Assembly (NCBI GenBank): GCA_963965975.1
Contig: OZ014420.1
Coordinates: 5,792,001 to 5,856,000 of the forward strand
Direction of reading: 5' to 3'
Source: Xestospongia bergquistia
Taxonomy: Eukaryota > Porifera > Demospongiae > Haplosclerida > Petrosiidae
Length of the DNA: 64,000 nt
Shown piece after piece: positions 15,774 to 63,786 of the stretch. Position 1 is the stretch's first letter. Every line of letters starts with the position of its first letter. A model generated the notes under the pieces. It was not told where the DNA came from and did not search any database. It saw only the letters and a list, made by a program, of their open reading frames with translations. Position numbers and translations under genes: made by a program.

Positions 15774-18700
15774 TTAATGTTTACTTTCAATCAAGTCTTC
15801 AATATCAGTAAAAGATACAATACTATTTACTTCAGTACCCACAGCTTCGTGATCATAATAGTGATCAAAGTCTGTCGTCATAGGAATGTGCTCCTTCTTG
15901 TCATCTTCCTCAAGCTCTCTCATCTTGTTCACACGACTCCTATAATGAAACAAGATCATGCAATTAACACTAAATATGCCAGAATTATAAATGCCTCTTG
16001 GAAATATCCATGCACTTATATACACATTTACCATGTTTTGTAAACTATCCAAGTCACACACACACCAGCTCCAATAATGACAGGTAAATAAAAAAATGGC
16101 CAAAAGAAATATGTTATTGAATCGTTAGGAGGTAAGTCAGATTTATAGATACTCGGTATTGAAGTCCCAGAATATTGTTCTAAACTATCCAGTAGAGTCT
16201 GTGGAAAACGAAAGATAAAAAGCACTGTGTAGTCCAGAAGGACAATAGCTTCTATAAAATTCTGGATTGTATATTTGTATGGACGTATGTAGACATGTAG
16301 GACAAAAAGGAAAGCCAGCACATAGAGGGGAGCTACCTAGAGAGAAATAACAGGATCAATAATGAGTTATGAATGTACAAGACTATATCAAGTCTTTGAA
16401 AAAAAATAAAGGAGTCATAATCATTGCTTGTCCACTGGTTTGACAGATGATAACACTTGGCTAGACTTGCTTACTGTTCGTCCAGGTAATCCAATAGCAA
16501 TACTTATTAATAGAATACGACGAAACAACTCCATTCCTCCCCACCACTTCCAATTTGGTCGATAACCAGCCTTTAAAGCTTCGACAACATTGATTAATAA
16601 TGGATGCTTCTCCTAATAAAGAATAACAATAGTTCCATTAAAATTTGGGGAATCAAATTATTAATAGTTAAATCAATCATGCATTCAGTTAATTAATTTA
16701 GCAAGGAATTCTATATAAGTCTCAAGAAAGGTGCTTGTGGAAAATCAGATTTTTGACTAATGTATGATTAATATATTGACAATACAAATTGGCTGATAAT
16801 TATATTAAGCAATTAAACTACACATTAAGTACATGATCTTTGCATGGCAAACCTGAATAAAGGAATGTTTTTCGAATAGCACTAGTAGTATAATAACTGG
16901 AATTAATCCAATTAAACCCAATAAAAAAATAATTGCCATGAGCCCAAGAATGATGTGTGATACATCATTGAAACATTTAATATCGGCATTTAGAAACCAT
17001 CGCTAAAAAAAGAGTGACAAGGAAAATTAAAGAATATTCAGCGGTACATGAGTGCAGACCATAACATTTTCATTTCCATCATTTTTTGGCAGTACAGGAC
17101 AATGTAAAAGAGCTATACATGTGTAGCAAAGTGGAACATAAGTTAACTGAACTAGACTCCATACACCATGCCACATCCCTCGTTTTCCTCTAAAAATGAA
17201 TAAACAGAATGTATGAACAGCAAAGATCCTTTCTCTGTATACCTCTGACTGAATATGAAAAATATAGGTATGATAAAAACCAACAGAGGTGGAATAAATC
17301 GAGGTAGAAATACTAGTACAGATGGAACATCCGATAAGAAACAAAAGTCGACTGGGAAATAAAGACCCATCAAATTACCCAGATATAGCATCTATCAACA
17401 AGAATCAATAACAAATAGTTGTATAAGTTGTCAAAAAGATATCTCACGTATTGTCTAGAGTCCCAGAATGAAATTGGGAAATATTCTGTAGTGATATATA
17501 CAGTCTAAACAAAACAAACAAATAATAGCATCCAACTAAAATCAGGTCCCTACTTGGACATAAAACAGAACTGCCCTCAGTGAGTGAGGCAAAGGAATAC
17601 TCAACTTCATTGATACAAGTAGTACCACAACTATTATGACAACATCCATAAAAACTACAAGAAAACCCAACACATCACTACATAATAATACAAACAAAGA
17701 GTCATACCTAAGATAGCAGTAGCAATGAAAAAAATACCATTATCACAGTCGTCTTGACACTGCATTCTTAGAACAGTCACTGTAGCATTACTACCACAAG
17801 AACCACAAAGAGTCCCTAAAGAACAAAGTTCATTAAAATCAATCAATTTAACCATCATTTTAGACTTTTGTACCATATCTTGGTGGATGACATTGCTCAT
17901 TAGGATCGTTATAGTTGTAGGCTGTAACACAATTGTTAGTATCATTATTTGATAAGCATTGACAGTAAGTAATAGGACAAGTGTAAGTTATCAGATTGGG
18001 TGCTTTGAGATTGTTTGCACCCTCATTGACTTTTCCAGCCCAGTATCCATTCTGTGTATAATGTAGGAAAACAGAAACAAAAAACAAGAAAGATTTTGAG
18101 GCAAGTATATATACAATTTAGAGATAATTGTAATGTAATGTTGGTCAGCTCTTACTCGTAGTATGACAGCTGTCTCATCATCTTTGCAATCTAATACAGA
18201 AAATGGATCATCTTTTGCACCAGTACAAATGCATTTTATGATATTATTGTTATCTGAAGTAGGTTGCAACTCGTAGCCAGGCAAACAAGGCTGTATCTTT
18301 AGTGATATGTTGATATAGTTTGACTATAAGAATGATATTGAAAAAGTATTCACTTTGATATGTTAACATATAGCTAGCTACAAGGAAAGGTATATTGCAT
18401 GCAATTAAAAGAGTAATTATAATTTAGTGTTGAAATAGGAAATTAATGTCCTATAGTCTTTGAACTGTTGCCATACAACACCTACACAATTGTTACCTAT
18501 TCAAGCAATACTTCTATTAAATTGCCTTCCATGCCATCTCCATTTGCTAGGCCAAATTTAATGAAATTTCATTATTTTGATAAATTGATAATGGCATTAC
18601 TACAGCACATTATATCTACACTATCTACTCACATTAATACCATCATTAGTTTGCACTTGTAGCAACACGTGTTTATGTTGTGTTTTGATGACACTGGTAT

Positions 18701-21700
18701 AATCTTTTTCTGCCTTTCCTGGTCTCAGTGAAGAAGGCAATTCAAGACCATATGTAATATTGATTGATTTGTTAGGATACACAGGTATCAGACCAGGATT
18801 AAATTGAGCTGTGAAAATATCCTAGAGATGGTTCAATATTAAGAAAGAGAACACCAAATATTATTTATTAACTCAATAATTATATAAGATAGTTATATTG
18901 AACCCAACTAACACATGACTTGCATACATTTTTAAACTGACCATACTAAAGCATGTATTCATAAGCTATATAGTAAGTAAGCTAGTGGTTTCGGCCATTT
19001 ATAATACATTGGCTGGTTTACATGAATTAGTCAGTTTGTGTATGCATTAAAATGGTTGTTGTTTATTTATTATATACCTTTTGTTGATACACCTTTGAAT
19101 AGTTTTCAGGAGGTTGAAATGAAGAATTTACATCAAATAATTTGGAAAGAGTGCTGCCCAAACTTTTATCTTCATCAAGAATACGAACTACAAAATAAGT
19201 AGGATTATTAAACTGATCCAGTCCTGTAATCTGTATTGTCTTAACTTCACCAGGACGCAAATCAAGCTACAAAGAAAACAAGGCAATATATCTTTTAACA
19301 CCTACAGAGCCTTGTTCTTACGGTATAATTGTTAAAAGTTCTATTATCAATAGTCAGGGCCGGTGTCTGTATATAATAACGTCGATTGGTATGATCTTCA
19401 TGACTAGTATTGTTATTGACACTATTGAGAAAACAATAATAGATTATTGTTATATACCCAGACTGTGTTGTTTGGTTACAAGGTTATTTGACATACTCAA
19501 AGTGAAACACTGGCCAGTTGGGAAACTGATTAATATTGAAGATATTTTTAATGTCAGTTTTATTGTTAGAATAAAAAGAGCACAAGTTTAAATATGAAGC
19601 ATATATAGCCGAGCCAATAGAGGCTTTGTTACCAGAAAAATGGATCAATTCCTATAGTAATGGATACATGAATATTGCAGTGTAAATATATCTCCTTACG
19701 GGGTCCCATTCAAGAGGGGGCATATCTTGGTTCTCATAGAGTAAAAAGCAAAGAGGGTTAGAAAGAAAATTTGAATAGACATTTGGAAACTGTTGGAGAT
19801 CAATCTTCATGGCAGCACCAAGACTAGAGAAATTTGAAAACTTTACATTTACTGTCGATTGAGTGTATAGTCTGTCCATTAATCTATCCTTTATCCATCC
19901 ATTCTGTGTTATCTTACGTTCCATTGTTGTTAATGAATGAGATGTTGGTATTTTTATGCAACATGATCTGAGCAAATGCAGACAAATGCATTGTTGCACC
20001 ACCTGCTATCTGATTGCTGTTTCCGATAAAAGAGAGATTGCCTTTTTGTCGAACTAAACATCCAATGACCTAAGAGTCAATCTGTTACTATCAGTGCCTC
20101 CATCCATCCACCATCCATTTTAATATTTGTCCATTTTCTCATTCTTCCATCAATCTGTTCCTCCATCCATCCATTCACCCACTCGTCAAAACATCCACCC
20201 ACACAATTACTTGAAAGGCAGTTCCAATATTATTAAGAAATGTATTATTGCCAATTGTATCAATGTGAGTGAAACCAGCAACAACAGTACCACCAGGAGA
20301 TTCATTTTCCATGAAGAAGCTAACAGAATGAAACCATTATCAGTATGTTAGAATTACCAAAACTCACTATTGTCTATTCACCATTATCAACTAACCTGTC
20401 TTCTAGTTGTGAGGGTTGTATCAAACCTTGAGATTTCACATTATACAGTGATCCAAATACAATAGCTGATCCTTGTTTTGCTTCGTTACGTATGAAATTA
20501 GACCTCTGAACTATCATGTAGTCATGACTACCATTGACTCGAGTTTGAACAGCTAAAATCCCTCCACCAGAATTGCCACTGTTATTTACAAAATTACAAT
20601 CGCTAAATTTAAATACAGAAGGGTCACTATCTGCTTCTCTCTTCAAATAGCCAAGAAAAATAGCTCCACCACCACCCTCAGAGCATTTATTTCCAATAAA
20701 TTGAGTGTTAGAAACAACCATAGAATGCGTCGTGTTGCTACCATCAAGAGCAATATATATAGCACCTCCAAATGATTGTGCTTCATTTTTGATGAAAAGA
20801 CAGTCAACAACAGAGGCACTTATGTTGGTCATTGACTCTGTGATAATCACACTTAGTGCTCCACCACGAGCAGGATAGTAGTTTTCATTCAATACTTGAC
20901 TGGTTTGTTGGGCAAGTAGTGTATCTGAAATTTTTGCTTGATTTCCTTCAAATTCGCATCCTTGTACCATCAATGTTGGATAAGAGTCAGGTTCTCTTTC
21001 AAACTTGTATGAGACACAGAGTCCTGGTGCATCAGCTCTATACCGATCATTCAAGGATGTGACATTGTTTTCAATAAAGTGACTGTTTATGACTGTAATA
21101 TTAACAGTGTTTAAAACATCAACTGCAGGTGCCTTGAAATTCCTACAAGAAGTGTATATATACCACAAAATATACTTCATATCTACATTGACTATTTAAA
21201 ATTATTTTAATGGATTGTGTTTTATGCACAAAATCTATAAGTGTTACTATGGTAATGAATAATACCTATTAATGTAAAGATATAAACAGGAACACTAATG
21301 GAGTATTTCAGTACATACTTTCCAATGGATTACAGTATATTACTTGCATATAAACCACAGAAGCTTAAGTAATTTACATAGTAGTATATCAATAATGGTA
21401 AAACAAACTAAAGTAATCAATCATTATCATTGCTGTTGCCATAGTAACATTAAAATAACTTGTGCTACTCACATGCTAAACTAATACTAAAATCACATGA
21501 TATATTTAATTTCCTACTTTGGTATGACTCAGACCACATCCTTTACTACAAGTTTTAATATTGAGCATTTTTGCCAATCTAGTAAGTTACATTAGAGTCA
21601 GCTAATTAATGTTTTCGACATATATTGCTAAATAAGCATCACAAACCTGAATGTGCAATTTTCTATCAGCAAGTTCTCTAGATTATCAAACTTTAAGGAA

Positions 21701-22140
21701 TAAGGGCATTGCTGAAACACAATATTTTCAAATGTAATGTTACCCTTATTAAGAATTTGTTGAGGACCAAATCCAATCTGTGTTCCAGTTTCATCACCCT
21801 TGTGTTCATTATCACTACATAATAGAACTACATCATCTCCAAATGCAGCCATTATTGACAATGAATATGTCACATTGATGTTTGATGACACAAGTCGATA
21901 AGTGCCTGCAGCTATATTAATGTCAACATTTGAATGATTTTGATTGAGGCTCTGCAGAAAGCTTGTCAAATCTAAACCTTTGCAGTCATTAACTGGATAG
22001 TTTTGGGAGGACACATTCACTTGTTCAGCATTGTTAGTACAGGGATATATATAGTAAACTGATTGTCCTTCTGTACTACTGGTAAAGATGAGTGATCCAA
22101 GAAGACAAAATAGAGGCACAATGTCATAAGAAAGTGGCAT
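15774..22140 (-). CDS. Gene C: beta-helix ectodomain multi-pass membrane receptor-like protein
   Basis: Twenty exons, 1302 aa: 22140-21647, 21142-20396, 20319-20211, 20069-19918, 19823-19700, 19651-19497, 19421-19322, 19266-19078, 18821-18633, 18323-18156, 18051-17874, 17815-17708, 17654-17554, 17504-17448, 17391-17243, 17189-17060, 17002-16853, 16612-16475, 16336-16032, 15939-15774. Signal peptide at residues 1-26. The beta-helix region (exons 1-6) has Pmp-like repeats such as FIKNEAQSFGGAIYIA and FVNNSGNSGGGILAV. A cysteine-rich stalk lies in exons 10-12 (CLPGYEL, GYWAGK, GTLCGSC). Membrane helices are in exons 13-19; IRPYKYTIQNF at about 1163-1173 is the family signature. The acidic tail ends DLIESKH and lacks the REPLL motif of its paralogs. 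The ends of exons 8 and 16 have alternative in-frame donors (19093; also CAT|GTACCG past 17060). It starts 141 bases from gene D, head to head. Function is unknown; a surface receptor or adhesin is inferred. Confidence 0.82.
21243..21448. promoter_or_regulatory. Two X-box-like sites in intron 1 of gene C
   Basis: GTTGCCATAGTAAC (21435-21448) is an excellent match to the RFX X-box consensus. GTTACTATGGTAAT (21243-21256) is a weaker one. Both lie in the first intron. Confidence 0.35.
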
Positions 22141-22281: not shown

Positions 22282-25200
22282 ATGAAACTAGAGATAATCT
22301 ACTGTCTGTTCCTTCTCGTTCATTTGGTATGTCCATCATTATGTGATAATAGTGCATGTCAAACTTTGAATACATACTTTGAAGATTTTCACATTAATCT
22401 TCTAAGTACTTCAATAGTTCGATTTGTCTCATTTCATGAAAATGCCACTGACTCACCGGACTGTTTGTGTCGGGGTAACCCCTGTGCTACTCCTCGTTAT
22501 GCTTTATATGGTGATGATTTCATGTCAACTGATGTTCAGCTTCAAAATATCACTATAATTATTGGATCTGGAGTCCATCAACTAACTGAAGGATTACCAA
22601 TACATAATGCTACTTTCATATCATTTATTGGTGTAGATGATACAGTTATTGAATGTGGTGAAAATCCGATTTTTTCAAATTGTTCTTTGAAAAATATCCA
22701 CATCATTAACAGTTCCTTTATATACTTCTATGGAATTACATTTCAGAATTGTCAACCCAAAGTATCCATGCTTCACATACAACATTCAGAAAAAGTCATT
22801 TTTGATAATTGTGTTTTTAGGTAAGAGATTTAAGGCACAAATTCTAATATATATATAAATCTGAACATAATTAAATGTTGACATATAAAAAATGTGTGTA
22901 CTTAATTAAAAGATTTCGGATTACTTAAGACCCTGCAATACTATCCCTAAACACCTATTGCATGCAACCATTTGTCTAATAATAATTACAATCATCCTTT
23001 TTTATATTCAGAAATCATCCAAGCAGTGCTGTTCATCTTTTTCAAGTAGATTCAGTTGCTTTTCGTCGCTGTATTTTCAACAATAACATTCAAAAAGAGG
23101 AAGACTCAGCTTCCACTTATCCTCAATGTTACCCTGAACAAAATGATAACATATTCTTTCTAGATAGTCGACCAACAGCTGGTGCAGTGTCAGTGTATTC
23201 TTTTCAACATAATATAAAACTTTTAGTCTCTGACTGTACCTTCACAAACAATGCAGCTCTCAATAACATAAATAGCTCTCTTCCAAGATCTCTATTCTCA
23301 TATGGACATGGTGGTGCTATGTTCATTCGTTTTGTTAATTCTTCTAATTCTCAAGTCTGTATTGAGAACACATTTTTTAATAATAACACTGCTCAAGCAA
23401 ATGGTGGAGCTCTGCAATTATCAACAGCTAACAATAGTGTTGCCAATGAGATTATGATATTGAATAGCACCTTTTCTGGTAATAACTGTACCTTGAAAAC
23501 TTGTTTTGGTGGAGCTGTTGGTGTGGACTATGTTCTTGACTCCAGCTTTGAAATTCTTCATATCTTTAATTCATCTTTTATTGACAATCTAGCTGATGCT
23601 GGAGGAGCTCTTGGACTATTGACATCCATAAGTTCTACCTATGAGGATGAAGCACTCAAGTCCTTGTGGTTTATGAACTGTCTGTTTGATCATAACATGG
23701 CTAGACAGGATGGATCGGCACTCAGTCTTTTCTCAATCACACCTATCAGCAAACGTAACTTCCCTATATTTATAGATAATTGGTGAGTTTATTTATATAA
23801 TCCATACTCTAAGAGATATGGTTTGAATAACAGACTATACTATTTACTAAGATCATCCAAAGATGTAATAGCAACTGGAAAGTGTGCATGGTCTGTTATG
23901 TTAATTCACTGATGGGTGTGCTTGAATCTCCAACTTCTCTCTCTTTCTCTCTCTCTCTCTCTATCTCCTTTCTCTCTCTTTCTCTCCTTTCTTTTACTAA
24001 ACAGTTCCTTTCACGATAACATTGCATTGAATGTAGAGAGTACTTCTGCTGTCTCTGTATTTCGAGTAACTCTTAATTTTCTTAATAAGAATGTATTTTA
24101 TAACAACTTTGGTGGTGGTATTACACTCATTGAGTCCCAAATTAATGTGAAAAACAACCTTACCTTTCGTCAAAATTTTGCCAACAATGGTGGAGGAATA
24201 GCAATGTTTGGATACTGTCTTGTAAGTGACAACATATATAGAGTAACTATGTGTCCTTAGTTAGTACAGAGGTTAAGCAATAATGGTAGATGTTTGATTG
24301 AATGAGTGAAACAATTGGCCTAAATATAAAGCTTAATACATAGAGCTTCAGGTTACACAATGTTGGTTGCTTCAGTTCATGTTATCTCTCTCTCCCTCTC
24401 TCTCTTTTTCTCTTCTCTTTCTCTCTCTTTAACCAGCTACTCTTGTATAAAGACTCTAATCTCACTTTTGTTGAGAACTATGCTCTTAGAAAGGGAGGAG
24501 GAATATACATTGAGTATGTGACAATAAATTTTGCTGTCCTTGCTGCTCTAAATAGAGGCTGCTTTATGCAATATCACTCTTCAAGTGACAATCCTTCCAA
24601 TACTTGGGTAAATATCTTTTAATGTCTATCTTTGCCACTATTGTATTGTAACTGTGTTATTTATCTTTAGGATACTAGTGTTAGTTTCATAAATAACACT
24701 GCAGGAGAGGCTGGTGCTGCTCTATATGCCAGTGATATGTCCCAGTGTCAATGGTTTGGTAATAGCTCTATTACTAATACACCTATATTTGTTCCAATTG
24801 ATGGATATAATTCACCTTTTCACTTTGAGTAAGTTACTAATTAACTAATTATAACTGTGTAATTTTAAATGTAATAGTTTGTCTTAGTTTATTTTGTTAG
24901 TGTTTAGTAATATTATAAAATATTAGAGAGTCTAACTGTAAATTAACATTGTGAAATGATATAAAAATATCAGATCTTGTCAGTAATTATAACACTTTAT
25001 TTATTACCATTTTTATAGTGGAAATACTTTCGCAGGAGTTCATTCTATTAACATCACTAAAGTTGCTTTAGGTACAGATGCTAAGACTATGTATGCAAAT
25101 ACAGAGGTGAGTAGAAAATATACCATTATATAATTTTCTCTCTTCCCATATATATATGCATGTATAAACAGAGTAATTATACTGACTATAGCTTCAGTGA

Positions 25201-27024
25201 GAGCATAGTTTTCAAATTGTCAGCTTTAGACCAGTTTAATAATCCTCGAGAGGCAATTTGGGAAGTTGATGCACCTCAAGAAGATGATGTAAGAAAAGAT
25301 CACACGAGTTTTTCAGGCACAGATAAAATTTTAATATATATTATGCATTACATATTTTTAGCCTTTGGGAGCAATCTCTTCAGAACAAACTCTTTATACA
25401 TATGATGTTCCATCAAGAAATGCCTTACTTGAATCAAGAAAAATCAACAATGATTCCACTAATATCAAACTGACCTTCTCTATCTTCTCTATTACTTCAA
25501 CAGTAAGTTTAGTATTACAATAAATATTACTTGACCCTTATTAAGATTATAGTAGTTAATAAAAGAAAATGTTGTGGTTGATTTCTTGTCATATTTTTAA
25601 TTACTAGGTTGAGCCAGTTGATGTTGTTATTGCAGTGATATCCTGTCATCCTGGTTATAGTCAGACTGAGACTGGCTGTGTATGTAATAGGGATCTCAAG
25701 CATATTGTTAGATGTGATGATTTAGGACGTTACTTCTATGTACAGGTAAAATGGAGTGACATAATGTGTCTACCACTTATGATGCTTCAACATTAGTTTG
25801 AATGGATGGATGGATTAGTAAAGACAGATAAATAGATGGACTGACTAACTAAACGACAAACTGACTGACGAAAAGACAGATAGAGAGATTTGAACTTTCA
25901 TATTTGTCTTTCCATGTATCCTCTCTTATTGACATGTAGGAAGGATATTGGGTAACATTTCACAACAAAAAGCTTATCTTTAAGTCTACAATACCAGGTT
26001 TTTTAAATTGCTCACATGAAGGTACTCTACCAGGATGTTTGTTCAAATATGATAACGAAAACTCACAATGTACTTCTGGAAGAACAGGTTAACAAAGTAT
26101 ATATAATAATAGTTAATAAATACTTAACAATTGAGTAAGTATCTATATTGTATCCAGATTATATTATAGCTGTTTCACATATCCATTTCTCTTAACTAAT
26201 TATGTTATATTTACAACTCAGTAATTGTGTTTGTGTATGTACACTATAAACTGAATTATATGTACTTGTACTATTTAAATATATATGTATATTGTATACA
26301 GATTATATACTGTAATAAAAATATATTTTAGCTGTTTTGTATACTAATATGCACATATATCATGTATCTATTTCTCTATTACTATAATGATTATGTTATT
26401 TGTTGTTATATTAGGTGTATTGTGTGCAGAATGTGAGTCTGGTTATTCACTAACCATGGATCTATTGAGTTGTAATAATAATTGCAGTAATTGGGGAGCT
26501 AGTCTACTGCTTGTTACAGTCTGTAAGTTATGATGTTGGACACAAGAAGCCACAAAGTCTTCAAATATATCACTATAAAAATTGATTGCAGTCGCCATTA
26601 ATTGGTTATACACGTTGCAATTGCAAACCCTTTTTGTTGACGAAGTAATCAAAGACTGTTTTTATTACTAATGTACTACTGTTTATGTAGCTACATAAAC
26701 CGTCAACTTCATTGTATTTAAATAATCAAATATAGAATAAAATAAAAAATCAAATAACATTATGCTTACATTTTCCTCATGTAACTTGTATAACCATGAT
26801 CAACAATTCAATTTTCACAGTGTATATTGTTAATAAATAACATTATTACTACTTTCAAGTATGTATCATATATCTTTGTTGCTGTAGGTATTTTAACAGT
26901 AGTTTTATGTCTGTTGGTTCTTTATTTTGATATTGCTATTCCAAATGAACTCAAAGGATTCATCTTTTTTGCACAAGTAATGAAAACAAAATTTAGCATG
27001 ACTTTACTATCATGACTACAAGAG

Positions 27025-27055
<31 letters not shown>

Positions 27056-31046: not shown

Positions 31047-38103
<7,057 letters not shown>

Positions 38104-38124
38104 CTTTTTTGACATTTTTTGATA

Positions 38125-39259: not shown

Positions 39260-47128
<7,869 letters not shown>

Positions 47129-47536: not shown

Positions 47537-47573
<37 letters not shown>

Positions 47574-51788: not shown

Positions 51789-51912
51789 CTTAAGTTAGAC
51801 ACTCCTTCTGTGTAGGCGTTTTATAACATGTGCAATTTATAAACACACAATACAAAAAAAAGGAGTTAGTACATAATATTTGCACACATTTCTAAAAAAT
51901 AATGTTAAAGTA

Positions 51913-54900
51913 TTAATCTTCTTCGAGAGACGAGTGTGTACCATAATCTAAAGTAAGAGCTTGTTGTTCATTCTCAGGAAGAAGAGCTAAAAGAGGTTCT
52001 CGATATTCATAAGCACTCTCAGATATCTGCACAATCTGATGAGAAACTTCTCTACTAGTGTTGGAGGTCCTTTGTATAGTACTGTTACCATGAGATTTGG
52101 TGTACTCGGGTTCTTCTAACGCTGTCATTTCTTTTGAGAATACTTTCTTTAATAATATTTTACGACACTTGAAATGTCGCATTATGACATAGACTCCACT
52201 GAGAAGTATATAAAGAAGGGGAAGTAGAGTAAGAGTATAAATGACCACTGCATAAAATGGTTTGATCCATTTGTTCTGAGAATAGGAATAGACTGGATTA
52301 CTCTGCTCTTCGATGAGAGCTGTAAGAAGGATGAGGTCAGAGAGAAGGAGGGTGTTGACAACATTAAGCCATTTGTTATGATATGGGCGAAAAAGAAAGT
52401 GGATAGAAGCCATGGCAGCTAATAGTATCTGTGTCACCACAGTTATATCTTGTACAGAAAGGATTAGCATCCAGAATATCATATAAAGTGCTGGATACCA
52501 GCGATAATTATCCTCATAGCTAGCTTGAAATTGATCCAACACTGGTTTCAATCGAACAAGATTGATTTTTTTGGCTAAGAACGGAGCAATGGCGAGAAGG
52601 ATAACAAATGGAATAATAAGGACAAGAAGTATTAATAAAGCAAATATTGCAAATGGTATGTGTGTTCCTGTGAAATAGGTCAAGTTTGGCTGGAGTGTAA
52701 CACGAAGTGTATCAACACCAGAGAAATGGCAAAACCTCAAAATTTGAATGCTTGTATCAGCTAGTGACCAAAATGATAAAAGCATGAGGAGACAAATGGC
52801 ATGAAGAGGTGATACATTTAAAGATTCTTGAAGCCGAGGACATCTTCGAGCTGTGAACACAGTCATTAGCAATACAGAGCTTACAATGATTGGTCCAAGA
52901 TAGTGAAAGGCATAGTTTTCTAATGCTGATAAAGACGGGAAAAAACACCATGGTATTTGTCCAAAGATTTCCATATTCAAAAGAAACACTGAAGTAAATA
53001 TTGACACAATAATTTTCAATTTGTAGTACTCAGCGTAGTACCCAAATGGAAGATGATTAATGACAGCTAAGAAAAACAAAGGTCCATATAAAAATCCCAG
53101 ACCACTTGAGAATTTCATGCTGATGGCAAACTTGATCATAAATGACAACAGTAATTGAAAACTTATAACCAAGATCAGTAGTACATATGGTTGCCATGGC
53201 TTGCACAGTTCACCTGATACACAATGGATTCCCTCAAATGTGAAACTTGCTCCGTCTCTACAATCCATACACACAATACCACCACGATCATTAGTACATT
53301 GACCATTTTCAAAGGAGGCTAACAAAACATAACTAGAAGATTGTTGCTTGCCAACGCTTGCTGGACAATCTTGTGCATCACGACTACAATATAGGTATTG
53401 ACATTTCACCAAAATGTAGAAATCTTCTCCTCCTATTGTTAGTCTGCCATACCAGTATCCTTTAGCGATACAGGATTTACCTTCTCTCAGTGAGCATGCA
53501 TAATCACGTTGATCTTCCCAAGCACATTGACACATTGATGAAGATGAGTTGTATGTGAAACCAAGTGGACATTTCTTGATGTTTAAATATAATATAGCTT
53601 GATTTGAGTAGCGACATTCAAAACGTAAAGATGGCTGACTGAATGTGGTAAAGTTGTCTGCTTTGTTGGGTGCTAATAACCTCAAATCTGAAATAAATGC
53701 TCCTTTGGATAATGTAATTTTTGTAGGTCCTTCTAATTGGAGGAATTCGTCACCATATCCACAACTGATAACTTGATTTTCACATTGCAGATAAACACTA
53801 GCCACACAGGAACTTGTTTCATCAAATGCTCCATAAACACTTGTATTGACAACAATATTTTGTCCTGGAAATACAGTCAGAATGCCAGTAGTGTCATTGT
53901 CACCATATATAAAACCAATTTCAGAACCAGATGAACCAAATCCTAGTGTCCCTTCTAAATAATCACTAATATTGTAACAGTTATCCAGATATGTAGACAG
54001 ACAATCAAACACAACATTTGGATTTGTTAAGTATAAATTATTTCCACCACTACTGGCCCTGTTTCCTTGGAATGTCATATTCATACTACAATAAGGGTCA
54101 TTGATATAACACTGATCTAAAGAATCCATATCAATATACATAGCACCTCCATATAAGGCACAGTTCTCATAAAACTGGACATGACACTGTTTGTATGCAT
54201 TAATTACTGTTTGACCATGTAGAGCTACTCCTCCTCCATTGCGACCAGAATTACTTATGAACAGAAGAACACCTCCAGATAGATATACGTTACAATCAAC
54301 TATGTAAAGAGCTGTACCAACATTGGCATAAAAGGTGGAATTTAGAAGGAAGAGTTGTTGGTTGGTAAACTGGACTATACCACCTATTGTTAAAGGAATA
54401 ACATTACCAGCCACTAGCACATTCTCAAATGTCACAAAAGGTACTTTTGGGTACAAACAGGGTTGACATATCATTATTATAACATTCCCATTATTTGCAG
54501 TAAAATTATTATTGCTTATCAAGAAGGTCCCTGGTTCTGAGACATTCCAGTGCTCAATATGAAACCCATTTCCATTGTTATACACAAGAGCATTGTAGGT
54601 AAGGTTTATGTTTATTGAAGTAATTGTCATATCACTGAAATAAAAGGATACCAATTTTCCAATTGATACTGAGTTATTGAAAAATGTATTGCCAGACATT
54701 TTTATCTTTAGAATACGCAATAATGGACTATAAGCATCAATCCAAACGCTTCGCCCATAGTTACCATAATCATTTGCAAAGAAGTTGTCTTTGAATTCAA
54801 GATTGACTAAATTGGCTTTACCAAATGCAACCATGATGCCTATTTCAGCAACAAATTTAAATGTTACATTTAGTCCCTGACCTTGGACGATAACATTATT

Positions 54901-55668
54901 TGAGAAGTTGCAATTCTTAATAGTGCTCAATAAATTATATTCGTCATTAAGAGATTGGATATAAATACCAATAGTAGCAGTGGGTGTTGCTACTGATGTA
55001 GTTAGTCCAACATTATTAATAAAAGTGCAACCCTCAATTAAATAACTGGTTGAGTTAGGTGATCCAGACCCGTCTGTACCAACCTGTTGACCAAGGTAGA
55101 TTTGTCCATTGTAAAAATTATTTTTGTTGAAAGTGCTATTACTGATATGAACATTTTGAGCACGTATGATTACCAAATCACTACAATTGCTGACAAAATT
55201 GTGAGTAAAAGAAAAAATATTGAGATTTACAAAATAGAAACCAACAACCTCATCACCTTCCATATAATATCCTGTACAGTCTTTCCATGACAATAACTCC
55301 ATAGTTACAGATAGATTGACAGGATGCACAGCAGACATATGTACAAAACCTTCATTGACACATTGAAGTGTTACTGAACTTACACCCTGTATGGTGAGGT
55401 TCAAATCAGAGCGAAAGGTTGCATTGACTGGACTAATAGTATGACTGTAAATCACTTTAATCAAGACATCAGTGGATAATTGGTACATTGGCAATTGATT
55501 CAATGCATAGCTCAGTGTAAGACAAGATTCCTGCTGATTCATGAAGCATGAAGGTACGTTATGACCGTTAGCATTGACTGAAATGATTGTCAAATCTCCA
55601 GCTACATCTTTAATAAGGGATAATGAAGTAAAGAGGATAAGGAGAATTACTGACACTTTCTTAGACAT
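51913..55668 (-). CDS. Gene H: intronless beta-helix multi-pass membrane protein
   Basis: A single open frame; 1251 aa from the Met at 55668, chosen because a signal peptide begins there (SVILLILFTSLSLIKDVAG). An upstream in-frame Met at 55704 would add 12 residues. SCFMNQQESCLTLSYAL is the N-terminal family motif. The ectodomain has Pmp-like elements (FISNSGRNGGGVALHG, FYENCALYGGAMYID). Stalk: CPLGFTYNSSSSMCQC, GYWYG, DRGGIVCMDCRDGASF. Membrane helices start near residue 820 (YVLLILVISFQLLLSFM), with GLGFLYGPLFFLAVI and FRPYHNKWLNVVNT near 1092. The tail contains YREPLLALLPE about 35 residues before the end. Closest in the window to gene I by loop motifs. Spaced 124 bases from G and 215 from I. 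Function is unknown; the family plan suggests a surface receptor or adhesin. Confidence 0.9.
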   Translation of the reverse strand: MSKKVSVILLILFTSLSLIKDVAGDLTIISVNANGHNVPSCFMNQQESCLTLSYALNQLPMYQLSTDVLIKVIYSHTISPVNATFRSDLNLTIQGVSSVTLQCVNEGFVHMSAVHPVNLSVTMELLSWKDCTGYYMEGDEVVGFYFVNLNIFSFTHNFVSNCSDLVIIRAQNVHISNSTFNKNNFYNGQIYLGQQVGTDGSGSPNSTSYLIEGCTFINNVGLTTSVATPTATIGIYIQSLNDEYNLLSTIKNCNFSNNVIVQGQGLNVTFKFVAEIGIMVAFGKANLVNLEFKDNFFANDYGNYGRSVWIDAYSPLLRILKIKMSGNTFFNNSVSIGKLVSFYFSDMTITSININLTYNALVYNNGNGFHIEHWNVSEPGTFLISNNNFTANNGNVIIMICQPCLYPKVPFVTFENVLVAGNVIPLTIGGIVQFTNQQLFLLNSTFYANVGTALYIVDCNVYLSGGVLLFISNSGRNGGGVALHGQTVINAYKQCHVQFYENCALYGGAMYIDMDSLDQCYINDPYCSMNMTFQGNRASSGGNNLYLTNPNVVFDCLSTYLDNCYNISDYLEGTLGFGSSGSEIGFIYGDNDTTGILTVFPGQNIVVNTSVYGAFDETSSCVASVYLQCENQVISCGYGDEFLQLEGPTKITLSKGAFISDLRLLAPNKADNFTTFSQPSLRFECRYSNQAILYLNIKKCPLGFTYNSSSSMCQCAWEDQRDYACSLREGKSCIAKGYWYGRLTIGGEDFYILVKCQYLYCSRDAQDCPASVGKQQSSSYVLLASFENGQCTNDRGGIVCMDCRDGASFTFEGIHCVSGELCKPWQPYVLLILVISFQLLLSFMIKFAISMKFSSGLGFLYGPLFFLAVINHLPFGYYAEYYKLKIIVSIFTSVFLLNMEIFGQIPWCFFPSLSALENYAFHYLGPIIVSSVLLMTVFTARRCPRLQESLNVSPLHAICLLMLLSFWSLADTSIQILRFCHFSGVDTLRVTLQPNLTYFTGTHIPFAIFALLILLVLIIPFVILLAIAPFLAKKINLVRLKPVLDQFQASYEDNYRWYPALYMIFWMLILSVQDITVVTQILLAAMASIHFLFRPYHNKWLNVVNTLLLSDLILLTALIEEQSNPVYSYSQNKWIKPFYAVVIYTLTLLPLLYILLSGVYVIMRHFKCRKILLKKVFSKEMTALEEPEYTKSHGNSTIQRTSNTSREVSHQIVQISESAYEYREPLLALLPENEQQALTLDYGTHSSLEED

Positions 55669-55883
55669 CTTTTGATTATTAAACTGCAGAGTCTGCCAAT
55701 GCATGTGATTGTTATGATAGCAGGAAGGCTAACACTTTTAAATGATCAATTATCAAAATTTGCACTTGTATTCAGCATGTTTATAATAAAAATTAATTGT
55801 ATAAGCAATAAAATCCATTAACTTATAATGTACCAAATTATTAGTGGATATTCGTTTACACACTGCACACAAACTAAATTTTA

Positions 55884-58800
55884 TTACTGAATGCCATATC
55901 TTGTAGTGTCTTCGTCACTTTTGAAAAAGATCGAATCAAGTAATGGCTCTCGAAAACCTGTGGTACCTCCGTCAATAATGACTACTTTATTTTCAGAATC
56001 CTGGCTAGAATCTCTAAATGTATTCATTCCATTGTCATTTAAAGATGGTGTCTCTTGAACAGTGTTTAAAAAGTTGTATCTTAATTTCAACCATCTAAAG
56101 AGACCAAATTGATATAAAATTACACATACACCACCCAGGATAGCATATAGAATTGAGGATAGAATGAAGATGTAGATAAAGGCTGTTGTTGCAGAGTCAC
56201 TGTTGTTGGCCTTTGTTTGCTGGAATAGAAGAGATGATACAAATAGAAGATTGAGAAGCAATAGCGTGTCAACAATGTTCATCCATTTCAGTTGGTAGGG
56301 TCTCAGAAGGTACTGCATTGTGACTAGTGTTATCAAAAGTAACTGCTGAAAAAGAGGTGAGGATTTTGCTAGAATAAAAATAAAATAGGCAATGAAATAA
56401 ACAGTTGGATACCACTGAAATTTGCTTTGATAACAGCCTTGATAAAAATACAGTAAAGGTTTCAACCTGGTAATGTTTAGCTTGCGAGCAAGGAGACACG
56501 AGCACATCAATAAGAGAACAAATGGAAAAAACAGAAACACAACCAAAAAAAATGAGAAAAGCCACAATGGTACATGTTCATGAGTGAAATAATTTAGCTC
56601 TGGTTGAAGAGCAACTGCTGTCTTCTCAAGACCATCAATATACACATGTACAGACTCCATGATTGCTACACTAGTACCAATTAAAGTCCAATATGACATA
56701 AAGAGGAGGAGAGCTGTTGCATGCAATGAGGACCCAAGATTAATTTGATGGCACTTGGGTATTAGTCGAGCTATCACAAACATTACAAACACTAATACAA
56801 TGACAATGATGGGTCCTAGAAATCGAAGTCCAAAATTTGATAGGGGACCTAAGTTTTTAAAGGTGCAGACTGGTATCAAACCGAACAGCTCCATATTGAG
56901 GAAAAGGAAGGTAGTAATGATAGTAACAAAACTCACCAATGTTGAGTAGACTGAGAAAGAATTAAATGGTAGTTGACTGATAATAGCAAAATAGAAGAAA
57001 GGACCATAGAAAATGCCAGCACCAAATTCTAATGACCACTTGAGTACTGGTAGTAAAAGTAAAGAGAGAAAGGTTTGAAAAATGAGTGCGAGAAAGAAGA
57101 TGAATCCTGGTTCCCAAGAGTGACAATGCGTAACACATGACACTCCTCCAAAGGTGAAATACTTATTGTTTGCACAATCCATGCATCCTATACCACCATG
57201 ATTACCAGTACATCGTAATGATGATTCTATCAACAGTTCATACATTTGGTTATTAGGAACATCAAGGGGGCAAGGTAAATGAGTGACATTGCAATACGGA
57301 GAATGACAGTTAGCATACGAAATGACATTATTTGCTTTGCCGAACCATAATCCTCGAGTTATGCAAGCATCCCCAGACCTGTTAGAGCAATGTACATTGT
57401 CTTGCACATCCACACACTCGCAGATTTGTGTGGAATTATCAAAATGGAACCCTTGAGGACATGTTTGTATAGTCAATTGCACAGTGGTCTTTAAGTTAAA
57501 ATATTCTTCACACTGTAATATCATTGCCACTTGTAATCGTGATGAAATAGGAAATAAAGTGGTTTTAAGATATAAGTTTGTAATCACACTACCTGATGAT
57601 AGCATCAATATTTTAGTGCCCATTAGAGACACTAACTCACAATCGTTATCATTGCAAGTTATTCTAGCAAAACCAATACAGTAACTGTCATGGTTATTTG
57701 CATCCTTTATGTTTAAATCAAGTGGTATGAGTTGTCCAGGAAAAACTGACACATTCAGTGTAACACTATTGACAGTAGAAGGAGGTGTACTAGCTCTTTC
57801 AATTAATGCCTTAGTTTCATTAGAGCAGTTTGAATTATTCAACTCACTTTTGTATTCTGTGACTTGAGAAGAGTTTTGAAAATATATACTGGATCCAGCA
57901 ATAGTTGCCTCATTGTCATTGACGAGAATGTTTGCAGAACACAATGAATGTAAATCTAGGTCTGAGTCTATATACATGGCGCCACCAAATGTTGCTTGAT
58001 TTGATTGGAAGGATAGATAATTAAATGACACATTAGACTTTCCATAGATAGCCAGACCACCACCTTGGTGACCAATGTTATCATTGAAGCTAACATAACC
58101 ATTGAAGCTTACACTAGAATTGTTTATACAAAGTGCTGTACCGTTATTGAAAGTGAACTGAGAGTCTACAACTGACAAGTACACATTCTTAGCATACACA
58201 ATTGCCTTAGGCCATAATCTATGAACTGATGGCCTGTTACTTGTAATGTTGACATTAGTAAGGGAGATAAAGGGAAAGATGAATGAACATTGGTCGCAAA
58301 GAAATTGAATTAAGTGAGATATGGTGGAGCTAGGTCTTGAATTGCTTACAATAATATCAGTCAAGTTATGTGTGATGTTGGTATTGCAAAGTATAGTGGA
58401 ATGATTGAGGGTTAGTATAGCTCCATTATTGTGAGAGAATGAATTATTGTGGTATGTAAAAGATATATCTTTATAGTTCTCACAATTGGGTATGTCATGA
58501 AGATTGATATGCATAACTCCCTCAGCTGTGTTGTTAAGGAAGACACTATTAACAACAGTCACAATACTACTTGTCTGTTCACTAATATCAATAGTTAAAA
58601 TACTTTTAAAATTCCCCCTATTGTCTTCGAAATGACAGTCTGTAATAGAAATGTTAACAGAATATGGACATTCACTTGTTTCAGATTTTAAGACATTATT
58701 CTCAGTTACAGTAGACTTGGTTATAGAAATATTGTTATATGTATGCCAGCATTGTTGTTGTCGTAACTCAATCTTTACCAATGCACTGAAATACTCTTCA

Positions 58801-59405
58801 TATTGATCTTTCATGGTGTCATTGACATGGTTATTACTGAAACTGTTCCCATGGAGGTACACAACAGGGGACTCCCTTATCGTGAGAGATGATCCATTAA
58901 TAAATGTGCAATTTTGTATGGTAATTTTATTAGCAGATCTAATAGTAACATTAGATCCAATAAAATGAACAGAATCTACAAGTACATTATCAAATCCTTT
59001 ATAAAATTCACACTCCTGGAGTGTAATGGAATTACAATCCTTCCATGATATTCCATGCATCTTTAGAGATCCAACACTGCAACCATGTATATCAATGAAT
59101 GAATTAACTGAGCAGCTAACATCAATACCATGACCAATAATGGATAAATCATGGAGTAATTCATATAGAGGCATATTATTGGCAAATTTATGGCTATATG
59201 TTATGTTTATAAGAGTTTTTGCTTTTGTTATAGTTGCTCCATATAAAGCATAGTCTAGAGTCCGACATGGATGCCATTGTGGAGGGGGTGGACAAAGACA
59301 ACCAACTGAGTTTTTACCATTAGCAGACACAGTCAGGTGACATGAAGGCGATCCATTCACTGAGCAGAGAAGAAGTAAGAAGACAAGACCTAGTAACAAC
59401 TCCAT
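55884..59405 (-). CDS. Gene I: intronless beta-helix multi-pass membrane protein
   Basis: A single open frame of 1173 aa with signal peptide 1-18 (ELLLGLVFLLLLCSVNG). The motif GCLC...HPCRTLDYALYG corresponds closely to DCLCRGNPCATPRYALYG of gene D, linking the intronless and intron-rich groups. Pmp-like repeats include FNDNIGHQGGGLAIYG and FQSNQATFGGAMYID. Stalk: CPQGFHFDNSTQICEC, GLWFGK, NHGGIGCMDC. Membrane helices begin near residue 765, with GAGIFYGPFFYFAIISQL and LRPYQLKWMNIVDT near 1033. The tail has GFREPLLDSIFF. An AATAAA (55885-55880, minus strand) overlaps the stop codon. It is divergent from J across a 207-base gap. Function is unknown; a surface receptor or adhesin is inferred. 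Confidence 0.9.
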   Translation of the reverse strand: MELLLGLVFLLLLCSVNGSPSCHLTVSANGKNSVGCLCPPPPQWHPCRTLDYALYGATITKAKTLINITYSHKFANNMPLYELLHDLSIIGHGIDVSCSVNSFIDIHGCSVGSLKMHGISWKDCNSITLQECEFYKGFDNVLVDSVHFIGSNVTIRSANKITIQNCTFINGSSLTIRESPVVYLHGNSFSNNHVNDTMKDQYEEYFSALVKIELRQQQCWHTYNNISITKSTVTENNVLKSETSECPYSVNISITDCHFEDNRGNFKSILTIDISEQTSSIVTVVNSVFLNNTAEGVMHINLHDIPNCENYKDISFTYHNNSFSHNNGAILTLNHSTILCNTNITHNLTDIIVSNSRPSSTISHLIQFLCDQCSFIFPFISLTNVNITSNRPSVHRLWPKAIVYAKNVYLSVVDSQFTFNNGTALCINNSSVSFNGYVSFNDNIGHQGGGLAIYGKSNVSFNYLSFQSNQATFGGAMYIDSDLDLHSLCSANILVNDNEATIAGSSIYFQNSSQVTEYKSELNNSNCSNETKALIERASTPPSTVNSVTLNVSVFPGQLIPLDLNIKDANNHDSYCIGFARITCNDNDCELVSLMGTKILMLSSGSVITNLYLKTTLFPISSRLQVAMILQCEEYFNLKTTVQLTIQTCPQGFHFDNSTQICECVDVQDNVHCSNRSGDACITRGLWFGKANNVISYANCHSPYCNVTHLPCPLDVPNNQMYELLIESSLRCTGNHGGIGCMDCANNKYFTFGGVSCVTHCHSWEPGFIFFLALIFQTFLSLLLLPVLKWSLEFGAGIFYGPFFYFAIISQLPFNSFSVYSTLVSFVTIITTFLFLNMELFGLIPVCTFKNLGPLSNFGLRFLGPIIVIVLVFVMFVIARLIPKCHQINLGSSLHATALLLFMSYWTLIGTSVAIMESVHVYIDGLEKTAVALQPELNYFTHEHVPLWLFSFFLVVFLFFPFVLLLMCSCLLARKLNITRLKPLLYFYQGCYQSKFQWYPTVYFIAYFIFILAKSSPLFQQLLLITLVTMQYLLRPYQLKWMNIVDTLLLLNLLFVSSLLFQQTKANNSDSATTAFIYIFILSSILYAILGGVCVILYQFGLFRWLKLRYNFLNTVQETPSLNDNGMNTFRDSSQDSENKVVIIDGGTTGFREPLLDSIFFKSDEDTTRYGIQ

Positions 59406-59612: not shown

Positions 59613-62600
59613 ATGAAGATTCTTCTCTTTCTTCTCTTCTTTCTTTTTCTTGCTTCATCTGGTCTCGTGTTCTCACTAGATTGTGAGGAACTTACTATCA
59701 ATCCTAGACCAGGCCCTAGGGACACTCCATTGGATAGGGCCCTTCGAGATATAGGTGGGGAGGATACTGATGGTGAATGTCATATTGTGACAATCAATGA
59801 AGGATCGTACGTAGTAAGACAAGGTTAGTTAACAAACTTAACAATACAAATTGATGTGTTGTTTTGAGAACATAGATAGTTTACTCCTTGTTTCTCTGCT
59901 TACTAGGTATCACCATCTCTGGTGGTGGTGGTGTCACTCTGATAGGTAATGGAAGTGTAGTAATACTTTTTAGCTCGCCAAATGCAACAGAATTAACAGC
60001 AGTCGAGTTTACAAACCTCTACTATGTTGAGATATTTGGTATAACCTTGAATGGTTCCTCAGGTTTTTTGAGTTTCACAAACGTCAGTAACATTGGTATT
60101 TATGACAGTCTTTTCAGGTAAGTTTGTTACAAAAATGATATATCAAATCAGCACTTCATTTTTTTCTTATCACAATACGTTAAATGCTCTCTCTACTGTT
60201 CATGTACTGTTCATTATTCTAATGATAGTTGTATTTATCTTTTTATTTCATATGATCACTTCCATTCTAACAACTCATTTTCTGTCTACTATAGATTTTT
60301 CCAACGAGGAACTCTTGTTGTACAGAACTGCGATAACGTTTCAATCTCAAACTCTGTGTTTAGAGCAAATGGTGAAAATGTTGCAACAAGAAACATGTTA
60401 GAAGGAGGATCAGGAGGTTTATCCCTCCAGTACACAGATGAAGTCACCTTTCCTCAACCACCCACTTTCCTAATAAATAATTGTAGCTTTATTGCTAATG
60501 AAGCATTAGTGGGTGATAATTCAGCTGGTAGTTTTTCAGAGGTCGATCGAGACGAGTTTGTATATACTGGTAGAGGAGGAGCCATCTTTATATTGATGCA
60601 GAATACACAACGTGTGATTGGTATTATCGGAAATTCTGTTTTTATTAACAATAAAGCTTCTTTTTATGGCGGTGCTATTTATATTGCATTTAATTCATTG
60701 TCAAGGAGCAATATTACTATTCATAATTCAATATTTCGTCAAAATAGTGCTGGTCGTGCTGGAGGTGGAATCATGATGTCGTTCCAAGAAGGTGGAGATG
60801 ACGAACATATTAATAGTGTTAATATGCATAATTGTATTATGAGAAATAATACAGCACCGTATGGAGGAGGTGTATACTTTTTAATTAGTATTCAATCAGG
60901 TTTGTTGATGGAATGGGTGGTAGATGAATGAATGGATAATGCTTTGGTCTTGTGACGACTTCACATGTTAAACATGTGATGTGAAATGTAATGTAATTAT
61001 CATATAATAGTGTCATTATTACATATTTACACTCATCATATATGCTGGTAACTTTATTATGTAAGAGCATATTAAGTAAAACTAGTGTAAAAAAGAGATA
61101 TTATATTATTCTCCCACAATCTGACCCATATTTTATTGGTTCTGTATCAATAGTAATGTACTACGAATATATATAAGATTAGTTCAATTAGGAGCTCATT
61201 AATAATTAATAGCTATAATGTGTAAAGACATATGCCCTCACTCATAAATATTAGAAGGAAGGACACTGGCCATTCCTCTGTCCTAATTTATGTTCCATCA
61301 TTTAATTTGTATGTTTTTGTTATGTTTATAACTGTATTCTCTCTTATGATTTCCTGGTATGTTCCTTTTAGGACGAGAGGATGGTGAATTGGGTTGTTTT
61401 GCATTGTTTCTAAACTGTACATACATTAATAATTTTGCTACTGAATATGGTGCAGCTATTGGAGCTACAGCTCTTAATTTGTTTGAAAGTAAAGCAGAAA
61501 CCAGACCAGCAGCCATTGTTGACTGGTAAGAATAATTTTACTATCAAAGAAACCACATAGAGTATTAATACACGTCTAATATTTCCAAATTATTCCATAT
61601 TTGGTGTTGTTATAACACTTTGTACAATATAATAAAACTTTGTATTATTACATTTATGGCCATGTTTGGTCACAAATTAAATAGTTGCATTATGAGATCA
61701 TGTGGTTAGTAACATGACACCAAGACACCTTTCTACCACATGACTGACTTATTTTTTATTCTACTTTGAACATAAATAGCTGAAATTGTTTTATATGTTA
61801 AAATTATTGATAAACTAGTATATTGATGGGCAAGTATGTACAATCAACATATTCCATATAACACTGGTGGTTGTTGTCATCGTGATCATATTAGCATGGA
61901 GTTTGTTCAGATTATGTCAATTCTATTGGTTACATCATAATTATTTCATTCTCTCTCATTGTCAGTACATTTAGAAACAACGAGGGAGGTACCTCAGTTA
62001 TTGCCATCACAAACTTTCCTTTTGTTCTGCGAGGCAATAATACAATCAGGAACAGTGAAGGTTCTGCTATTATGGTATATTGTACTTGTTATATTGGTAA
62101 TTAGTATCTTGTTTTATAGATTATACAAGCTAAAGTATTTTTCAATGGAACTATAAACATCATTGACACTAATGCACAAGACAATGGATTTGGTTCATTA
62201 GTCACTTTGAGTCATGGACAAATCCAATTAATGAAGAATACGAAAGTCTCTTTTATTGGAAATCGTGGAAGGTTAGTCTTAAATCATGGAGGGAATGTAC
62301 ATGCCATTCTTGAAACCTGTCATGACATTTAACATCCATACTCATAACTTGGATATTACATTTTTGTTTTAGAGTTACAAAGGCTAAGGGGTGGAGTTTG
62401 GATATAATAAGTGTTATTACAGTTACATGCACATTATGTAAGGATGATATAATTTATTTCTTATTTCAGATTGGGTGCTGCTCTTCACCCAATATTGTAC
62501 TCTGCTCCAAATGCCTATCCTGAACTCTTGCTTAATCCACTCTGTACCTTATTATATGAAATACCACATTTACCACCAGATAAATGGCAGGTTCGTTTGC

Positions 62601-63786
62601 CCTTCTCCCCTCATTCCTCTCCCTCCCTTCTTGTTCCCTCACTAACATACCAATTCTTATGTTTTATAGGTAAACATGACATTTGATCGTAATAGAGCTG
62701 ACATTGGTAGTGCAGTTTATACAAATAGACTAAATTTATGTTCTTGGACTAGTTATGATGGCAATAATATGTTTGATATAGATCAAGCTTATCATTGGAA
62801 ATTTATTCACTTTGGGTAAGATATTCAATACTATGTGTATATTTAGTGGTATTGAACTCCTAGTAATGTAAATTAATTACACAAGTATTTTTTGTTTTTA
62901 TAAAATCTTTGCTCTTTCTTTTAGCCCTTCTAATTTTGACAAAGCTCATCCATTTTCTGAATCTGGAGGTGAAAATGTTGTTCAAACACAGCCAGCATCT
63001 GTATCTACTATGCCTGTGGTTAGTCATATTACAAGTTACTATTTTTAGCAACTATTGTTAATACTAAATTAGTAAATGCTGCTAAAGATAGCATGTTTCT
63101 ATTTTTAGTAACATTTGCTTATATTACTTTAGTTGCTAATATAATACATCTTTATTTTAGTAAAGTTTTATTTTTAGTAAAAGCTGTTATATGTAAGTAT
63201 TGAAATGGTTGTCACTATGTTTCTTTACTATATTTAGTAACAACATGTTTCTTTACTATATTTAGTAACAACATGTGTTCTATTTTAGGTTGAAGGACTT
63301 CCAGGCCAAGAAATCACACTACAGATATCTTCTTTTTCAGAAACTAATGATTTGACATTTGCTTTCTGGAGATTTATAGCAGTAAGCATACCAACTCTAA
63401 CATCAAGTGTATTATATAGGTTGTTGTTAGGAAGGTGGAGAAATTGTTTTCAGTCCATCAGTCCGATCAGCTCCTTTTGATTTGACAAGATCAACTGATT
63501 TGATATTTTATGTTAATGAGTCTCTTACTGAACGTCCTCTTAGAGTAAATGTTAGAGTAACAACATTACTTAATGAGGTATCATAACTCCATATATACAT
63601 TTGATTGACTCTCTCTCTCTCCCTCTTTCTCAGGATGAGAAGAGTACATACTTTCAAGTTATAGTTAAAGATTGCCCTGTGGGCACCCTTCTAGAAGCCA
63701 CTGCAATTACTGGATACAGTCGATGTGTGTGCAATCAAGGAAGAAAAGAAATTGTATTTTGTGATAGAAGAAGAATATATATGATT
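59613..63786 (+). CDS. Gene J: beta-helix multi-pass membrane protein, 5' part (continues past right edge)
   Basis: Twelve exons seen, 732 residues so far: 59613-59823, 59907-60117, 60295-60899, 61372-61525, 61966-62074, 62120-62271, 62470-62590, 62670-62815, 62925-63018, 63289-63381, 63431-63577, 63634-63786, ending in a good donor (ATT|GTAAGT). Start chosen at the Met that opens a signal peptide (KILLFLLFFLFLASSGLVFS). Pmp-like repeats: FINNKASFYGGAIYIA, FRQNSAGRAGGGIMMS, MRNNTAPYGGGVYF. Exon 12 has the first stalk cysteines (CPVGT, GYSRCVCNQG). The phases of exons 5-12 equal exons 3-10 of gene C, including the intron missing in D-F. Its first four exons correspond to two in C, so it carries two further introns. 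The stalk end, membrane part and tail lie beyond 64000. It is closer to C than to D-F. Confidence 0.82.
63019..63288 (+). repeat. Tandem repeats with acceptor-like TTTAG in intron 9 of gene J
   Basis: Two perfect 28-base copies (63217-63244 and 63245-63272, each with CTTTACTATATTTAGTAAC) and several worn copies upstream. Each unit contains a pyrimidine-rich TTTAG followed by TAA. The true acceptor TATTTTAG|GTTGAAGG follows at 63288. Confidence 0.7.

What the first reader, a model, noticed from the sequence alone, without database searches (positions are those of the whole stretch)
15774..63786. Cluster of eight beta-helix / multi-pass membrane receptor genes in 48 kb
Genes C-J share an unusual fusion: a Pmp-like parallel beta-helix ectodomain (FxxN...GGA repeats), a cysteine-rich stalk with a CPxG...CxC...G(Y/L)W...NRxGxxCxxC pattern, seven to eight membrane helices and a short tail. 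The membrane part is not an obvious class A, B or C GPCR by eye. A dense local expansion of such surface proteins beside SRCR receptors suggests a recognition, adhesion or allorecognition locus (inference).
Basis: partly seen in the sequence, partly recalled or inferred. Interest (0 to 1): 0.8.

Follow-up and report, generated by a model that had tools for sequence, protein, structure and literature searches.

The report
Huge beta-helix membrane-receptor gene family
The eight genes are one small piece of a very large, largely intron-free family of surface proteins, each a predicted beta-helix head on a cysteine-rich neck and a multi-pass membrane part that matches no described family, and they probably serve to recognise sugars or particles at the cell surface.

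Summary
Genes C-J are homologous and complete: Pmp-like, probably beta-helical ectodomain, cysteine-rich stalk, multi-pass membrane domain, short tail. Five have exons; G, H, I are intronless. Corrections: the membrane part has at least eight predicted helices (nine favoured); the cluster spans about 71 kb with two further complete J copies; and it is not special. At least 382 places in this 146-Mb genome match the stalk/membrane module (413 with weak stalk-model matches), largely long uninterrupted frames, often in tandem arrays. The membrane domain matches no Pfam family over cut-off and no PDB sequence, nor 9 class A/C GPCRs of this genome. Intron-bearing and intronless genes lie on opposite sides of one branch (92/84), suggesting a single intron-loss event before expansion. 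Selection is mainly purifying; the ectodomain changes faster than the membrane part in 10 of 10 intronless pairs but 1 of 3 D/E/F pairs. A PL[LI] tail motif recurs in 17 of 29 tails (1 expected), suggesting endocytic sorting. Best reading: surface recognition receptors, perhaps glycan- or particle-binding and internalising. Allorecognition is unsupported. Molecular function is inferred, not shown.

The parts
15774..22140 (-). Gene C: 19 exons, 1,279 aa, Pmp-like ectodomain + stalk + multi-pass membrane domain; tail ends DIEDLIESKH
   Evidence: splice-aware model; Chlam_PMP 28.9 bits in exon 20374-21195; membrane profile E 9.5e-22, stalk 3.1e-14
22282..29211 (+). Gene D: 19 exons, 1,282 aa; tandem duplicate of E and F; tail REPLLED
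   Evidence: membrane profile E 2.1e-13, stalk 2.2e-14
31047..38103 (+). Gene E: 19 exons, 1,246 aa; tail REPLLED
   Evidence: Chlam_PMP 26.5 bits; membrane profile E 4e-14, stalk 8.1e-15
39260..47128 (+). Gene F: 19 exons, 1,245 aa; tail REPLLESIM
   Evidence: membrane profile E 1.2e-18, stalk 3.1e-13
47985..51788 (-). Gene G: intronless, 1,267 aa; of the window genes G, H, I, E and C the closest to paralogues L037, L040, L041, L042 (41-44% in the stalk/membrane part)
   Evidence: 92 further genome places listed with its stalk+membrane query
49575..51731 (-). Gene G ectodomain (predicted right-handed parallel beta-helix)
49230..49574 (-). Gene G cysteine-rich stalk (CPPGF...CDC...NVWIG...NRAGILCGQC)
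   Evidence: alignments; Pfam DUF7630 match is sub-threshold (13.1 bits, cut-off 27); boundaries approximate
48219..49229 (-). Gene G membrane domain, about nine or ten predicted helices
   Evidence: boundaries approximate
47988..48218 (-). Gene G predicted cytoplasmic tail (contains RRESLLFDES and ends in PLI)
   Evidence: tail analysis
51913..55704 (-). Gene H: intronless, 1,263 aa, same architecture; tail has YREPLLALL
55884..59405 (-). Gene I: intronless, 1,173 aa, same architecture; tail has FREPLLDS; divergent from J, start codons 207 bases apart
   Evidence: membrane profile E 1.6e-54, stalk 8.8e-16
59613..64000 (+). Gene J: 23 exons, 1,261 aa; runs off the window to about window coordinate 66919 (L009:3919); no PL[LI] in its tail
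   Evidence: membrane profile E 5.7e-21, stalk 6.3e-13

Best explanation
Genes C-J are members of one large superfamily of cell-surface proteins. A signal peptide leads an ectodomain (about 575-780 residues) that probably folds as a right-handed parallel beta-helix of Pmp-like coils, set on a cysteine-rich stalk and anchored by a domain of about nine membrane helices (N outside, C inside) with a short cytoplasmic tail. Most likely mechanism: the beta-helix binds extended surface ligands such as microbial or self polysaccharides or particles, and the recurrent PLL/PLI (dileucine-type) motif of the tail recruits adaptors so that bound material is internalised. The many paralogues would give a large germline-encoded recognition repertoire. 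Many copies are intronless; the tree suggests one intron-loss event (a retrocopied ancestor) followed by tandem and dispersed duplication. SHOWN: architecture at sequence level, homology, copy number as a lower bound, mainly purifying selection, recurrence of the tail motif. INFERRED: the fold in detail, helix count and topology, ligand class, endocytosis, recognition role, retrocopy origin, and that the organism is an animal, probably a sponge.
Against: No ligand, expression or localisation data. The ectodomain model is weak (pLDDT 45, three-row alignment), Foldseek alone gave no match at E <= 0.001, and AF2 is reported to over-produce beta-solenoids for perfect repeats (PMC11795689, abstract). 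The membrane model is unusable (pLDDT 39), and the helix count depends on the setting (8-13). Only 7 of 29 tails have the strict [DE]xxxL[LI] form (3.4 in shuffles), YxxPhi is near chance (16 of 29 against 13.4), C and J lack PL[LI], and many tails are close relatives. In D/E/F the ectodomain exceeds the membrane domain in 1 of 3 pairs. The tree branch is under the tool's starred level and near several long branches. The stalk profile scored L021 and L039 only at E 0.31 and 0.081. In L019, L022 and L025 the open frame leaves little room for a beta-helix, so that head may not be obligatory.
Confidence: 0.5

Rival explanations
1. Chemosensory or signalling receptors of a new GPCR-like class with extra helices: ligand binding to the beta-helix drives a G protein through the membrane domain.
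For: Large, tandemly arrayed repertoire of long open frames, as in chemoreceptor families (recalled); positively charged loop after the fifth hydrophobic segment; sub-threshold 7tm_3 match in D (E 0.0036, 17.4 bits against a 33.5 cut-off).
Against: No 7tm_1 match and no other 7tm_3 match in the members scanned; family membrane profile does not match 9 of 9 class A and class C receptors of the same genome (best E 3.1); more than seven hydrophobic segments in 27 of 27. HHalign found nothing, but the class A against class C control also found nothing, so that test has no power here.
Confidence: 0.2
2. Allorecognition (self/non-self) locus.
For: Dense tandem cluster of surface proteins beside SRCR genes.
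Against: Not a single locus but arrays over many contigs; no sign of diversifying selection on D/E/F ectodomains; polymorphism between individuals untested.
Confidence: 0.07
3. Membrane-tethered polysaccharide lyases or hydrolases that digest captured food or matrix.
For: Many of the best structural matches of the ectodomain are lyases, epimerases and polygalacturonases.
Against: That fold is shared by non-enzymes such as adhesins; no enzyme family of this kind in the Pfam and NCBIfam scans of 21 members. No polar residue of the ectodomain is invariant over those 21, but this is weak, since rows are cut at the locus edge and three have little or no beta-helix.
Confidence: 0.1
4. Channel or transporter whose gating or surface stability is set by the ectodomain.
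For: Eight or more hydrophobic segments; the best, non-significant PDB profile match is a calcium channel (6w6l, E 1.2).
Against: No channel or transporter match over a cut-off in Pfam, and no PDB match at E <= 1 with profile A1 or below 1.2 with A2.
Confidence: 0.1

Closest known systems
Trichomonad Pmp-like surface proteins (48 in T. vaginalis; PMC6701047, passages read)
   Same: Eukaryotic, expanded, N-terminal Pmp repeats, membrane anchor, short tail with endocytic and acidic motifs.
   Different: Single membrane helix, NPx[YWF] tail motif rather than PLL, fewer copies; no cysteine stalk is mentioned in the passages I saw.
Chlamydial Pmp autotransporters (PF02415, TIGR01376; PMC11166332, one section and passages read)
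   Same: FxxN and GGA repeats at the spacing of beta-helix coils.
   Different: Bacterial beta-barrel autotransporter and Pmp middle domain instead of a cysteine stalk and membrane helices.
Pfam DUF7630 (PF24633, 45 positions)
   Same: Covers the NRxGxLCGxCxxGY part of the stalk; matches 18 of 21 members at E <= 0.1, best 2.8e-5.
   Different: Unknown function; D (20.5 bits) and G (13.1) are under the cut-off of 27, C had no match; in the genome 5 of 141 places are marked over it. It does not cover the membrane domain.
Expanded seven-helix receptor families (class C GPCRs here; olfactory receptors, recalled)
   Same: Large tandem repertoires, many copies in single open frames.
   Different: No detectable sequence relation; different ectodomain and helix count.

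Membership tests
Pmp-type repeat proteins (PF02415/TIGR01376) | FxxN and GGA(I,L,V) repeats at coil spacing | tested here: met
   All 8 window proteins above shuffles, allowing GGG for GGA; PF02415 over cut-off in C and E exons, below it in G and absent in H and I; 11 of 21 members at E <= 0.1
Chlamydial Pmp autotransporters | Pmp middle domain and C-terminal autotransporter beta-barrel | tested here: not met
   No such Pfam match in 3 full window proteins or in 21 members; C-terminal half is hydrophobic segments
Trichomonad Pmp-like surface proteins | Single C-terminal transmembrane helix | tested here: not met
   At least eight hydrophobic segments in 27 of 27 members
Trichomonad Pmp-like surface proteins | Endocytic sorting motif in the tail | tested here: inconclusive
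   PL[LI] in 17 of 29 tails against 1.0 by chance; strict [DE]xxxL[LI] in 7 of 29 against 3.4; NPx[YF] in 2 of 29
Rhodopsin-like (class A) GPCRs | Match to 7tm_1 (PF00001) | tested here: not met
   No match in the members scanned
Class C GPCRs | Match to 7tm_3 (PF00003) over cut-off | tested here: not met
   Only D, 17.4 bits against 33.5, part of the model. By eye, the listed 7tm_3 places of the genome do not coincide with beta-helix family places
GPCRs in general | Seven-helix bundle fold and G-protein coupling | tested here: inconclusive
   Membrane model pLDDT 39; profile comparison lacked power; coupling not testable
Right-handed parallel beta-helix fold | Parallel coils of short strands matching solved beta-helices | tested here: inconclusive

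The most novel reading that the evidence does not exclude
This animal's largest receptor repertoire is a new, non-GPCR superfamily: hundreds of beta-helix-headed, nine-helix, endocytic surface receptors, expanded from one retrocopied intronless ancestor, which act as its main germline-encoded sensor of microbial and particulate glycans and which Pfam-based immune-receptor inventories cannot see.
Probability: 0.3. Interest if true: 0.9.

Novelty: new variant of a known kind. Interest (0 to 1): 0.66.

Why it matters
Yet its membrane domain has no Pfam entry over cut-off and no PDB sequence relative. A published sponge immune-receptor inventory picked receptors by Pfam domains (PMC8242945, passages read), so such a family would be missed by that approach. 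If it is a recognition system, it bears on how an animal without adaptive immunity tells food, symbiont and pathogen apart.

Tried and rejected
Rejected: allorecognition locus (not local, no diversifying selection seen in D/E/F); GPCR class A or C membership; enzyme, on weak grounds. Prokaryotic or viral relatives: 87 and 78 pattern matches, none confirmed by tblastn at E <= 1e-3, in genome contigs (84,980 species) and viral contigs; these scans rest on two short patterns each, so distant relatives may be missed. Sub-threshold Pfam matches set aside: Wzy_C (best E 0.00096), 7tm_3, zf-LITAF-like, YMF19, cEGF. dN/dS values not below 1: D-F stalk 1.72 (dS 0.023) and one tail comparison, 1.03.

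Rows dropped: one search used 117 of the 141 PF24633 matches (frames of 500 codons or more), 40 of 71 (window exons and one short frame left out), 94 of 111, 101 of 106 and 100 of 102 (frames under 500 left out; one of 425 kept through) and 98 of 99; some kept places hold stop codons. One search kept 29 of 34 proteins (L033, L035, L019, L022, L025 out). One search kept 30 rows (L033, L035, L022, L025 out). All searches of G000 score only the best candidates (e.g. 93 of 757), so the counts are lower bounds; the 757-775 first-look candidates are not verified. Six-frame searching favours intronless genes. Changed on re-checking: helix count widened, J2/J3 found complete; the enzyme rival raised from 0.08 to 0.1 because the invariance test is weaker than I had first written.

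Full report
What is there. The window lies at C10:5,792,001-5,856,000 of an unnamed 146-Mb, 21-contig eukaryotic genome. I take it for an animal, probably a sponge, from its SRCR genes and its class A and class C GPCR repertoires; this is inference, no call names it. The three large frames G, H and I are intronless genes of 1,267, 1,263 and 1,173 aa. A splice-aware model, hinted with conserved peptides, gives C, D, E and F with 19 exons each and J with 23 exons, all without internal stops. J continues 3 kb past the window. Downstream lie two more J copies that match J over its whole length, each with a truncated 5' fragment of I (to residue 266) in front of it, so the unit 'I head / shared upstream region / J' was duplicated; the cluster ends at C10:5,878,527 and so spans about 71 kb. 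With the window proteins, tblastn found no member in the 50 kb upstream of the window nor in C10:5,885,001-5,905,000 (the upstream search used the 750-aa part of J).

How large is the family? Queries with G, H, D and three paralogues gave, after merging, 382 distinct places; with the DUF7630 model, whose matches are weak (E up to 1), 413 on 15 contigs, 289 of them in clusters of three or more. The largest runs have 31 members in 360 kb of C11 and 30 in 204 kb of C3. Each of these searches scored only part of its candidates, so the true number is probably larger. Frames of at least 1,000 codons were found in 77 of 93, 88 of 106 and 91 of 102 matches of three searches; one search lists more fragments and frames with stops. 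Six-frame searching favours intronless genes, so intron-bearing relatives are under-counted.

How did it arise? In a maximum-likelihood tree of 30 membrane domains, the five intron-bearing genes (C, D, E, F, J) and the 25 intronless ones fall on opposite sides of one branch (92/84; 90% of bootstrap trees). One intron-loss event, such as a retrocopy, is the simplest reading; the support is under the tool's starred level, several long branches meet, and intron gain is not excluded.

Is it functional? Pairwise dN/dS is below 1 over whole genes in D/E/F (0.39-0.55) and in ten pairs among nine intronless paralogues, where the ectodomain (0.40-0.73) exceeds the membrane part (0.13-0.46) in every pair (pairs share sequences). 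That fits a constrained membrane part with a looser binding part. D/E/F do not follow (ectodomain faster in 1 of 3 pairs), and no test shows positive selection.

Tail. PL[LI] occurs in 17 of 29 tails against 1.0 expected, in both intron-bearing (D, E, F) and intronless genes, but not in C or J. Proline before the dileucine recalls lysosomal and endocytic sorting signals (recalled), but the strict acidic form is found in only 7 of 29, and several of the 29 are near copies.

Comparison. The membrane domain has no Pfam match over a cut-off and no significant PDB sequence match. Nine own-genome GPCRs of class A and class C do not match the family profile. In the passages I saw of PMC12716839 on 18 choanoflagellate GPCR families, none is described with a beta-helix or Pmp ectodomain. 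The nearest working analogue is the trichomonad Pmp family, with Pmp repeats, a membrane anchor, endocytic motifs and adhesion (PMC6701047, passages). A sponge immune-receptor survey used Pfam domains (PMC8242945, passages) and so would not list this family.

Verdict.

Noticed in passing
window 55884-59613; C10:5,860,386-5,861,395 (L009) and C10:5,870,200-5,871,212 (L010): I and J are divergent with 207 bases between start codons; the two downstream J copies each keep a truncated 5' fragment of I (to residue 266) in front, so the shared upstream region was duplicated with them.
   Followed up: yes
window 2700-13400 (-): Two similar SRCR-domain genes (A, B; blastn segments 77-96% identical) with proline-rich tails; SRCR over cut-off in 2 of 3 exons scanned.
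   Followed up: partly
window 757-2247 (-): Transposase-like frames; ZSWIM1-3 RNaseH-like domain E 2.5e-7 with a weak MULE match.
   Followed up: no
L019, L022, L025: Paralogues whose open frames leave little room for a beta-helix: signal peptide-like start, then a cysteine-rich part and the same membrane domain (E 7.9e-36 to 8.1e-24). They may have upstream exons.
   Followed up: partly
G000:C5:6,974,000-7,212,000: Dense array of class C GPCR genes, most in open frames of about 900 codons, a second tandem receptor expansion in this genome.
   Followed up: no
window 32690-32930, 44290-44430, 12480-12780: Long CT/AG microsatellite runs within introns of E and F and at an SRCR gene.
   Followed up: no
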